Of a stretch of 43,376 nt of DNA, positions 1 through 3,059 are shown one piece after another; the first letter of the stretch is position 1, and each line of letters starts with the position of its first letter. The stretch spans positions 1-43,376 of the forward strand of contig CADEDG010000005.1 in the NCBI GenBank assembly GCA_902826035.1. Reading direction: 5' to 3'. The notes under the pieces were generated by a model. It did no database searches. It was not told the origin of the DNA and was given only the letters and a program-made list of their open reading frames with translations. The DNA comes from an uncultured Alphaproteobacteria bacterium. GTDB taxonomy: Bacteria; Pseudomonadota; Alphaproteobacteria; Caulobacterales; Aquidulcibacteraceae. The translations under genes and the position numbers were made by a program.

Positions 1-4
1 CCCT

Positions 5-144
5 ATGTGCCCCGCTTACCGGCGGACCTGGAAACAGCGTCCACTAACGCCCCCTCGGCCCAGGCCACCTGGGGGATCGCAAGCAACGGGAAGCAGGAAG
101 CTTCCTAGGCGATCCTCCGGCGCAAGCTCCCAAGGGCGGACCTG
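5..144 (+). CDS. Possible 46-codon leader peptide ORF
   Basis: An uninterrupted frame from ATG at 5 to TGA at 142-144 encodes an Arg/Pro-rich, very basic peptide with the stretch RPLTPPRPRP. The start may lie upstream of the window, because only four bases precede the ATG. Its stop codon lies 9 bases after the anti-SD element at 125-133. A ribosome terminating or stalling there would cover that element and release the decarboxylase Shine-Dalgarno. This resembles the gamma-proteobacterial speFL logic in concept. Whether it is translated is unknown; the function is inference. Confidence 0.28.
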
Positions 145-150
145 ACATTA

Positions 151-183
151 ATGCATGTCCGACTAACGCCGGCCTGGGTTTGA
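151..183 (+). CDS. Possible 10-residue leader peptide
   Basis: ATG at 151 to TGA at 181-183 encodes MHVRLTPAWV. It starts inside the second GGACCTG-type hairpin and runs through the second ACTAACGCC copy. That copy is read in the same phase as the first one is in the upstream ORF, so both encode a Leu-Thr-Pro core (RPLTP and VRLTP). No strong Shine-Dalgarno precedes it. It sits between the anti-SD element and the decarboxylase start, so translation could influence which structure forms. Speculative. Confidence 0.25.
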   Translation: MHVRLTPAWV

Positions 184-222
184 ACACACCGCAAAAGCGG
201 TGGAAGTTTTGGGAGCTGCCGG

Positions 223-1419
223 ATGGACTCTGTCCTCTCGCCTCTTGACCTTTTGGCGCGTGAAGCGCCGGACGGTCCCGTGGCAATCGCCCGCCCGCAC
301 CGCGTCGCCGCGGCGGCGCTTTGGTTTACGAGCAATTTTCCGGGCGAGGTGCTTTACGCGGTAAAGGCCAACCCCAGCCCATGGGTGCTCGACGCACTCT
401 GGAAGAACGGCGTCAAGGGCTTCGACGTCGCCTCCGAGGCCGAGGTCGAGCTTGTAGCTTCGCGCTTTCCTGAAGCGCGCATCGCCTTCATGCACCCGGT
501 GAAAAGCCGCCGCGCCATTGCGCGTGCCTTCCACGAATTCGGGGTCAAGACCTTCGCGCTCGACAGCGAAGACGAGCTTGAGAAAATCCTCGCCGAAACC
601 GGCGGGGCGAAGGACCTCACGCTGATGGTGCGCTTTGCTGTATCCGGCGAAGGCTCGGCCTATCCGCTGGCGCGCAAGTTCGGGGTTTCGCCCGAGGAAG
701 CGCCGGCACTGCTGCGGCGTGCGCGCTCGGTCAGCGAAGAGATGCTGGGCGTCTCGTTCCACGTCGGCAGCCAGTGCATGCGCCCGGACGCGTATCGCAC
801 GGCGATGTCCATGGTGAACCGCGCCATCGTCAAAGCCGGCGTGGTGGCCGATATCGTCGACATCGGCGGCGGCTTCCCGGCGATCTATCCCGGCATGAAT
901 CCACCGCCGATGATCGAGTACGTGAACGCGATCAAAGCCGGCTTCGAAGAAATGTTCGTCGCCCAGAACGCCGTGCTCTGGGCCGAGCCCGGCCGCGCCT
1001 TGGTGGCCGAGGCTGGCAGCACAGTCGCGCGCGTCGAACTGCGCAAAGGTGATGCGCTCTATCTCAACGACGGCGCCTTCGGCACGCTGTTTGACGCCAC
1101 GCACCTCAATTGGTCGTTCCCGGCAAAGCTGTTGCGCACGCAGGAAAGCCGCGCGCGGCTGGCGCCGTTTTCGCTCTATGGGCCCACCTGCGATTCCATG
1201 GACGCAGCAGCGGGTCCCTTCATGCTGCCCGCCGATATCCGCGAAGGCGATTTGATCGAGATCGGCTCGCTCGGGGCGTATGGCATGGCGATGGCGACGC
1301 GCTTCAACGGCTTCGGCGACGCGGTGACGGTGACGTCGAAAGACGCGCCGTGGCCGAGCATGTTCGGCGAAGTTGCGGCGACAAAGCCAAAGCGCGCGCG
1401 CAAGAACAAGCAGGCTTAG
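223..1419 (+). CDS. Ornithine decarboxylase (fold III, PLP-dependent)
   Basis: Cytosolic PLP enzyme of the alanine-racemase-fold decarboxylases, expected to make putrescine from ornithine; some relatives also take lysine. Visible motifs: YAVKANP with the Schiff-base Lys48, HVGSQ, the glycine loop DIGGGFP, EPGRALVAEAG for the PLP phosphate, and GPTCDSMD with the catalytic Cys323-Asp324 pair. The 398-residue length fits the short bacterial/eukaryotic-type ODC and not the long fold-I enzyme. The C-terminus is a basic tail (KPKRARKNKQA). The start is set by GGGAG at 211-215, 7 bases before the ATG. That Shine-Dalgarno is complementary to 125-133 in the leader, so translational control is likely. 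The deoxyhypusine-synthase-like gene lies downstream on the same strand. Ornithine versus lysine preference cannot be settled by eye. Confidence 0.93.
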   Translation: MDSVLSPLDLLAREAPDGPVAIARPHRVAAAALWFTSNFPGEVLYAVKANPSPWVLDALWKNGVKGFDVASEAEVELVASRFPEARIAFMHPVKSRRAIARAFHEFGVKTFALDSEDELEKILAETGGAKDLTLMVRFAVSGEGSAYPLARKFGVSPEEAPALLRRARSVSEEMLGVSFHVGSQCMRPDAYRTAMSMVNRAIVKAGVVADIVDIGGGFPAIYPGMNPPPMIEYVNAIKAGFEEMFVAQNAVLWAEPGRALVAEAGSTVARVELRKGDALYLNDGAFGTLFDATHLNWSFPAKLLRTQESRARLAPFSLYGPTCDSMDAAAGPFMLPADIREGDLIEIGSLGAYGMAMATRFNGFGDAVTVTSKDAPWPSMFGEVAATKPKRARKNKQA

Positions 1420-2006: not shown

Positions 2007-3059
2007 ATGGCTGAAAAGACAACCCAGAACCGCAAAGCTGAACTGCTCTCCTCACCCGTCGAGCACATCGATATCGCGAGCTTCGACGCGCGCCCTATCA
2101 TCGACGCCTGGGGCAAGATGAGCTTCACCTCCCGCGACGCCGCGCGCGCCGCGCAAATCCTCAACATGGCGCTGGAAGATGAAAAGTGCTCGACTTGGCT
2201 GATCATGGCCGGCTCCACCGGTGCGGGCGGGTGCCTGCATGTGTGGCGCGACATGGTCGAGTACAACATGGCCGACGCCATCGTCGCCACCGGCGCTTCC
2301 ATCATTGATATGGATTTCCTGGAAGCGCTTGGCTTCAAGCATTACCAGGCCAAGGAGATCCCCGACGACAACGTGCTGCGCTCGCTCTATATCGACCGCA
2401 TCTACGACACCTATATCGACGAAGAAGAACTCCAGCACGTCGACGGCACGATCTACGAGATCTGCAATGCGCTCGAGCCGCGCCCCTACACGTCGCGCGA
2501 GTTCATTTATGAGCTGGGCAAATGGCTCGCCGCCGGCAACGCCAAGAAGAAAGATTCGCTGATCCAGCGCGCCTATGAGAAAGGCGTGCCGATTTTCGTG
2601 CCGGCGTTCTCCGATTGCTCGGCGGGCTTCGGCATCGTCAAGCACCAGGTCGAACGCCGCAAGGCCAAGCAGCCTTATCTCACCATCGATTCCGGCGGCG
2701 ATTTCCGCGAACTGACCGAGATCAAGCTCGCGGCTGGCACAACAGCTCTCTTCATGGTCGGCGGCGGCGTACCGAAGAACTTCGCGCAAGACACCGTCGT
2801 GTGCGCGGAGATTTTGGGCCACGAGGATGTAGAAGTGCACAAATACGCCGTGCAGATCACGGTGGCCGATGTGCGCGACGGCGCGTGTTCTTCCTCAACG
2901 CTGCAAGAGGCCGCAAGCTGGGGCAAGGTGTCCACCGTGCACGAGCAGATGGTGTTTGCTGAAGCGACAAGCGTGGCGCCGATCATCGTCAGCGATGCGT
3001 ATCATCGCGGCGGCTGGCGCAAGCGCGAAGCGCGGAACTGGGCGAAGTTGTTTGTTTGA
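2007..3059 (+). CDS. Deoxyhypusine synthase-like protein (probable homospermidine-type aminobutyl transferase)
   Basis: NAD-dependent Rossmann-like enzyme of the deoxyhypusine synthase family, 350 residues. Visible: AGSTGAGG near the N-terminus, DSGGDFRELTEIKLA, the MVGGGVPKNF loop, and EAASWGKVST, where Lys307 aligns with the catalytic lysine that carries the butylimine in eukaryotic DHS (EAVSWGKI). Bacteria lack eIF5A, so the substrate must differ. Bacterial members act on free polyamines or related amines (homospermidine-type or guanidino products), which suits a gene close to an ornithine decarboxylase. The start is supported by TAGGAG about 10 bases upstream of the ATG. A GC-rich repeat and a strong hairpin follow the stop. 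The exact acceptor is inference. Confidence 0.9.
   Translation: MAEKTTQNRKAELLSSPVEHIDIASFDARPIIDAWGKMSFTSRDAARAAQILNMALEDEKCSTWLIMAGSTGAGGCLHVWRDMVEYNMADAIVATGASIIDMDFLEALGFKHYQAKEIPDDNVLRSLYIDRIYDTYIDEEELQHVDGTIYEICNALEPRPYTSREFIYELGKWLAAGNAKKKDSLIQRAYEKGVPIFVPAFSDCSAGFGIVKHQVERRKAKQPYLTIDSGGDFRELTEIKLAAGTTALFMVGGGVPKNFAQDTVVCAEILGHEDVEVHKYAVQITVADVRDGACSSSTLQEAASWGKVSTVHEQMVFAEATSVAPIIVSDAYHRGGWRKREARNWAKLFV

What the first reader, a model, noticed from the sequence alone, without database searches (positions are those of the whole stretch)
1..222. Anti-Shine-Dalgarno switch in the ornithine decarboxylase leader
Bases 125-133 (AGCTCCCAA) are a perfect complement of 209-217 (TTGGGAGCT), which contains the decarboxylase ribosome-binding site. 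The leader also carries a duplicated module: a GGACCTG-type hairpin followed each time by ACTAACGCC (24-51 and 137-170). Two copies of a structured module plus an anti-SD is a riboswitch or attenuator layout. The alphaproteobacterial 'speF' RNA is known upstream of such genes, but its mechanism is not well described.
Basis: partly seen in the sequence, partly recalled or inferred. Interest (0 to 1): 0.78.

Follow-up and report, generated by a model that had tools for sequence, protein, structure and literature searches.

The report
New Caulobacterales ornithine decarboxylase leader RNA
The start of this contig carries a highly conserved folded RNA, not catalogued in Rfam, that sits only in front of the ornithine decarboxylase gene across Caulobacter and its relatives and probably switches translation of this polyamine-making enzyme on and off; what it senses is unknown.

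Summary
The sequence observations are exact: 125-133 is a perfect complement of 209-217, and GGACCTG / ACTAACGCC occur twice. The leader is a real structured RNA: it precedes ornithine decarboxylase (ODC) throughout the window's GTDB family and, in a smaller one-module form, in Caulobacteraceae (Caulobacter, Brevundimonas, Phenylobacterium, Asticcacaulis). It is not speF (RF00518); no Rfam 15 family matches it; the published odc1 motif of alphaproteobacterial ODC genes has another fold. Covariation shows the two 'modules' are not tandem units: the 3' arm of module 1 pairs with the 5' arm of module 2 (P2; 5 of 6 pairs with two-sided changes), making two halves of one nested four-way junction. 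The anti-SD pairing is strong and conserved in the genus (best SD complement in 23 of 48 family leaders, nearly all of these congeneric) but decays elsewhere, where SDs are GGGGG and best complement the P2 strand or other sites. Most likely this is a translational cis-regulator of ODC, plausibly a riboswitch for a polyamine-pathway metabolite; ligand and switching direction are inferred. It appears to be an undescribed RNA class of a known kind, the third distinct leader RNA on this gene in Alphaproteobacteria.

The parts
1..18 (+). 5' end of the leader; promoter-like TTTACA...CCTAT lies just upstream, mostly on contig C11 (L065)
   Evidence: 55-nt overlap G000:C11:44936-44990; aligned promoter-like blocks by eye in relatives; formal sigma-70 scan found none
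19..23 (+). P1 5' strand CCGGC
   Evidence: inner four pairs invariant in 52 leaders; also present in Caulobacteraceae one-module leaders
24..42 (+). Hairpin H1 GGAC-CTG-GAAA-CAG-c-GTCC (GNRA tetraloop), half-module 1
   Evidence: insertions tolerated between CAG and GTCC
43..48 (+). Junction strand J1 ACTAAC
   Evidence: near-invariant
49..52 (+). P2 5' strand GCCC (extends to 54 in some relatives); also complementary to GGGGG SDs of other genera
   Evidence: covariation; SD complement
59..64 (+). Pseudoknot (or alternative helix) strand CCCAGG
   Evidence: invariant; perfect complement of 173-178 (energy); RNAalifold pairs it with 3' CCTGGG
69..116 (+). V1, variable hairpin with covarying stem
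   Evidence: 7 pairs with two-sided changes
117..133 (+). CCGGC-GCAA-GCTCCCAA element: GYAA tetraloop and anti-SD; complementary to 209-222 over 9+5 bp
134..137 (+). P2 3' strand GGGC
   Evidence: covariation
138..160 (+). Hairpin H2 GGAC...GTCC, half-module 2
161..167 (+). Junction strand J2 GACTAAC
   Evidence: near-invariant
168..172 (+). P1 3' strand GCCGG
173..178 (+). CCTGGG, pseudoknot partner of 59-64; YCTGGG also conserved in Caulobacteraceae
187..202 (+). variable linker hairpin (CACCGC-aaaa-GCGGTG type)
   Evidence: sequence differs among relatives, fold
209..222 (+). Ribosome-binding site GGGAG and spacer GCCGG, complementary to 117-133
223..1419 (+). ODC-family decarboxylase gene
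   Evidence: codons 1-5 form a small hairpin GGAC-NNN-GTCC (GGAT/ATCC in some relatives)
2007..3059 (+). Deoxyhypusine-synthase-like polyamine gene, neighbour of ODC in relatives too
   Evidence: NF002699 at 1e-165; 41 of 47 relatives

Best explanation
A cis-acting leader RNA of the ODC mRNA, specific to Caulobacterales, that regulates translation initiation. Shown here: a conserved core (P1 closing a junction with a GGAC/GTCC hairpin and a CTAAC strand), built in the window's family from two half-modules joined by a covarying helix P2 into one four-way junction; strict association with ODC; a perfect complement of the Shine-Dalgarno region within the leader, conserved in the genus. Inferred: the junction is an aptamer for a metabolite of the pathway (putrescine, homospermidine or another polyamine as feedback, or ornithine as feed-forward), and its folding decides whether 117-133 captures the SD and spacer (209-222). 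The leader holds two copies of CCGGC (19, 117) and two of GCCGG (168, 218) that can exchange partners. My preferred direction, a guess: junction formed (19:168) frees 117-133 to block the SD, so the bound state is OFF.
For: Conservation with tolerated insertions in hairpins. P2 covariation: 65 of 72 cells paired against 48.6 +/- 3.7 in shuffles; 5 of 6 P2 pairs changed on both sides, covariation score of the structure 0.215 against 0.099. V1 covariation. All 52 distinct two-module leaders lie just upstream of an ODC start; in named genomes 75 of 80 anchor hits precede ODC, two more are cut off by record ends, three look like chance. Cross-detection of one- and two-module forms (L115 at E 6.7e-5 with R1; L005 at 6.9e-5 with R2). 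Anti-SD energies -12.3 against -5.5 kcal/mol for shuffled elements. Polyamine gene neighbourhood.
Against: No ligand, expression or probing data. P1, H1, H2 and the pseudoknot hardly vary, so they carry no covariation; RNAalifold alone prefers 59-65 paired with 172-178 over P1/P2. The nested junction is about 10 kcal/mol less stable than the free optimum when pseudoknots are ignored. Outside the genus 125-133 is usually not the best SD complement, and swapping SDs costs little (-12.3 own, -11.4 swapped). Related lineages keep the core with other or no obvious anti-SD. Invariant junctions could equally be a protein site.
Confidence: 0.5

Rival explanations
1. The leader is bound by a protein (for example ODC itself or another regulator) or a small RNA rather than a metabolite; the invariant junction is the binding site and SD masking the output.
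For: Very high sequence invariance of the junction and tetraloop; ODC-only distribution fits autoregulation.
Against: No candidate protein; compact pseudoknotted junctions with invariant unpaired bases are typical of aptamers too (general knowledge).
Confidence: 0.25
2. It works like odc1: choice between two start codons 5 nt apart with an out-of-frame short ORF, the RNA fold steering the ribosome.
For: Caulobacteraceae one-module leaders listed carry GTG-NN-TTG (or GTG), and most have a 31-codon out-of-frame ORF; odc1 has UUG-NN-UUG with an 11-residue ORF (PMC8632094).
Against: The window and most of its family have a single ATG without the upstream start; odc1-type loci L137, L139 and L121 are not matched by models R1 or R2; folds differ. 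The constant ORF length may follow from ODC protein conservation (not tested).
Confidence: 0.12
3. It is a member of the speF leader family.
Against: No match at E up to 10 in the window, none in the genome, none in 12 relatives' ODC loci at E up to 1.
Confidence: 0.02
4. Two independent tandem aptamers, one per module.
For: Each module can pair GGC with its own GCC over 3 bp.
Against: Outer pairs fail and there is no covariation for that pairing, while inter-module P2 covaries strongly; Caulobacteraceae keep only one module.
Confidence: 0.04

Closest known systems
odc1 motif (uORF-25-1; PMC8632094)
   Same: ODC leader in Alphaproteobacteria, translation-level control, pseudoknot, paired start codons in Caulobacteraceae relatives of the window RNA
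   Different: odc1 is a single hairpin with the RBS inside P1 and an 11-residue uORF; odc1-type loci L137, L139, L121 are not hit by R1/R2; the window RNA is a four-way junction and has one ATG
speF leader (RF00518; PMC1273637)
   Same: ODC leader in Alphaproteobacteria, ligand unknown (in-line probing with ornithine, lysine, diaminopimelate, putrescine, cadaverine and spermidine negative in the 2005 paper)
   Different: no covariance-model match; different sequence and fold; ar45-type domain upstream
Bacterial spermidine riboswitch (SAM riboswitch variant; PMC10853860)
   Same: polyamine-pathway sensing by RNA
   Different: variant of a SAM aptamer (from the abstract); no Rfam match of any SAM riboswitch to the window RNA
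E. coli/Salmonella speF leader
   Same: leader control of an ornithine decarboxylase
   Different: different leader architecture and control (PMC6386406 abstract); no conserved leader peptide was found in the window leader

Membership tests
speF leader RF00518 | match to the covariance model | tested here: not met
   no hit at E<=10; none in genome; model does ring in other alphaproteobacteria
[quoted passage not shown]
   RBS 209-217 lies outside the junction; odc1-type loci L137/L139/L121 unmatched by R1 and R2; no public odc1 model was at hand, so this rests on the paper's description
odc1 motif | two start codons 2 nt apart and an 11-residue uORF | tested here: not met
   window has single ATG preceded by GCCGG; Caulobacteraceae relatives do have GTG-NN-TTG, but with a 31-codon ORF
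riboswitch (as a kind) | conserved complex fold in the 5' UTR of a metabolic gene | tested here: met
riboswitch (as a kind) | expression platform such as SD sequestration | tested here: inconclusive
   perfect and genus-conserved complement; weaker outside the genus
riboswitch (as a kind) | direct ligand binding changing structure and expression | not testable with these tools
   needs probing and reporters

The most novel reading that the evidence does not exclude
A new riboswitch class for a polyamine-pathway metabolite in Caulobacterales, whose aptamer exists as a small single-module form in Caulobacteraceae and as an internally duplicated, pseudo-symmetric four-way junction in the window's family.
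Probability: 0.4. Interest if true: 0.85.

Novelty: new variant of a known kind. Interest (0 to 1): 0.62.

Why it matters
It adds an apparently undescribed RNA class to ODC genes of Alphaproteobacteria, beside speF and odc1, whose ligands are also unknown. A form about 90 nt long occurs in culturable species such as Caulobacter vibrioides, so the open question of how these bacteria sense polyamine supply becomes directly testable. The enlarged form shows how a small RNA fold may grow by nested duplication of a half-module.

Tried and rejected
speF membership. Any other Rfam family: only chance hits. Tandem-aptamer reading. A conserved short ORF ATG-TCC-GAC-TAA in H2/J2: seen in many leaders but lost in L068 and L073 and explained by the structural CTAAC strand. 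Hits of the 3' anchor outside ODC: three in named genomes (Bradyrhizobium, Hymenobacter, Treponema) and two in family f5 (not read further), at the level expected by chance for a 15-base pattern. Sigma-70 promoter scan: negative, promoter seen only by eye in aligned upstream regions. Unconstrained energy folding: does not settle the state. Class-wide search with R2: only Caulobacteraceae among 337 genomes (strict filters). Literature: no description of this leader found in the held library; subscription papers are not held.

Full report
Observation. The exact complementarity 125-133/209-217 and the two GGACCTG / ACTAACGCC copies are present as stated. For the given SD 9-mer a perfect complement is rare by chance (2 of 5000 shuffles), though some 9-nt inverted repeat in a 222-nt GC-rich leader is not (116 of 1000). 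Window base 1 is the start of contig C5; contig C11 ends with the same 55 bases and shows the upstream side, with a promoter-like TTTACA ... CCTAT that aligns with CTCTTTACATTGGGG...CATAT in relatives. A formal promoter scan of that stretch found nothing, so the transcription start is inferred.

Is it real? Bases 1-222 match 54 of 101 genomes (the window's own included), at 82-98% over most of the genus and about 70-85% in most other genera of the same GTDB family. A covariance model (R1, built from the 36-sequence alignment) finds 53 of 299 genomes of the order, all in this family. Of the family genomes searched with the ODC protein, those with a full ODC either carry the RNA, carry part of it at a contig break (G024, G025; G014 is cut inside ODC), or carry a reduced form (G031); G006 and G011 have no close ODC orthologue and no RNA. 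One further genome (G070) has ODC with a different leader. All 52 distinct two-module leaders sit just upstream of an ODC start.

Wider family. Other families of the order show a one-module version: CCGGC-GGAC..GTCC-...-CTAAC-GCCGG-YCTGGGTT..-GGGGG-..GTG-AA-TTG. The two forms are related by statistics as well as by position: R1 hits L115 at 6.7e-5 and R2 hits L005 at 6.9e-5, while odc1-type loci (L137 and L139 with 11-residue uORFs; L121) are hit by neither. R2 found only Caulobacteraceae among 337 genomes sampled across the class.

Structure. In the two-module form the 3' arm of module 1 (after ACTAAC) and the 5' arm of module 2 (before GGAC) change together: GC to AT, CG to TA, GT or AT, and so on. 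Over 12 distinct combinations 65 of 72 cells pair, against 48.6 +/- 3.7 (maximum 64 of 2000 shuffles); the pair counter gives 5 of 6 P2 pairs with two-sided changes, and for the whole structure a covariation score of 0.215 against 0.099 shuffled and at most 0.082 when slid. Pairing each module with itself gives only 3 bp and no covariation. The two modules are therefore halves of one nested four-way junction: P1, H1 (GGAC-CTG-GAAA-CAG-GTCC), P2, H2, with unpaired ACTAAC and GACTAAC strands. P1, H1 and H2 are nearly invariant, so comparison neither supports nor contradicts them; P1 is also kept where the rest is lost. A variable hairpin V1 inside P2 covaries in 7 pairs. CCCAGG 59-64 and CCTGGG 173-178 are invariant and complementary, forming either a pseudoknot or, as RNAalifold prefers, an alternative helix. 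The compact AT-rich leaders L080, L081, L129 and L130 keep the junction and lack this element.

Mechanism. The SD and its spacer (209-222) are complementary to 117-133 over 9 plus 5 bp. In 23 of 48 leaders with the GGCGYAAG element, nearly all from the window's genus, this element is the best SD complement of the whole leader; mean energy -12.3 against -5.5 kcal/mol when the element is shuffled. Elsewhere the SD is mostly GGGGG and the best complement is often the P2 strand GCCCCC. The element is conserved even there, and swapping SDs between leaders costs only about 1 kcal/mol, so the anti-SD reading holds for the genus and is only partly general. CCGGC occurs at 19 and 117 and GCCGG at 168 and 218, so P1 and the SD-blocking helix share sequences and could exchange partners; that this happens is inference. 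Downstream of ATG a GGAC-NNN-GTCC hairpin is kept in 30 leaders, with GGAT/ATCC in 4 and broken in others.

Context. The gene belongs to the Orn/DAP/Arg decarboxylase family; general models score it best as lysA below cut-off, and the ODC assignment rests on the published assignment of alphaproteobacterial orthologues (PMC1273637, PMC8632094) and on the neighbouring deoxyhypusine-synthase-like polyamine gene (NF002699, 1e-165). That neighbour follows ODC in 41 of 47 relatives. A polyamine-pathway ligand is therefore plausible but not shown.

Known or new? No Rfam 15 family matches. speF was rejected by its own model, which works in other genomes. The odc1 motif (PMC8632094) is the closest published relative by gene, class and, in Caulobacteraceae, by the paired start codons, but it is a different fold. 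No paper in the held library describes this leader. I call it a new variant of a known kind: an undescribed ODC leader RNA class.

Noticed in passing
L195-L272, Caulobacteraceae ODC starts: GTG-NN-TTG (or GTG-NN-GTG) paired starts 5 nt apart; the out-of-frame ORF from the first start is 31 codons in most species (29 in four, 23 in one). Whether the stop is selected or follows from ODC conservation was not tested.
   Followed up: partly
L314 (G070), 1400-1500: One species of AT-rich genus g24 has a different, possibly odc1-like ODC leader where its sister species have the compact four-way-junction RNA: a swap of leader RNAs on the same gene.
   Followed up: no
L123, L124 (family f5, genus g16): Another ODC leader, with CTAACGACGGTCAGGG in L124 and ATG-NN-GTG paired starts, possibly a distant relative of this RNA.
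   Followed up: no
L122, L136 (family f2): ODC leader GGCGGAC...GCTAACCCACTCGGTGGGGGCCCCCGTACTAACGCC: looks like a shrunken two-module junction; only a weak model score (E 0.17).
   Followed up: partly
L061-L064: Rfam ar45 (annotated as an sRNA) lies directly upstream of speF RF00518 in all four loci, so ar45 is probably the 5' domain of the same extended speF leader.
   Followed up: no
L080, L081 downstream of the junction: A local GGGT / ACCCCC / GGGGGGTT arrangement looks like an anti-anti-SD, anti-SD, SD series independent of the 125-133 element.
   Followed up: no
L078, L079, L165-L170 (genus g6, Aquidulcibacter-like): GGTCCGC next to the SD is a perfect complement of the GCGGACC that opens each half-module, another possible SD-masking pair.
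   Followed up: no
window 1-55 and G000:C11:44936-44990: Identical contig ends: the assembly breaks inside this leader, as it also does in G024 and G025.
   Followed up: yes
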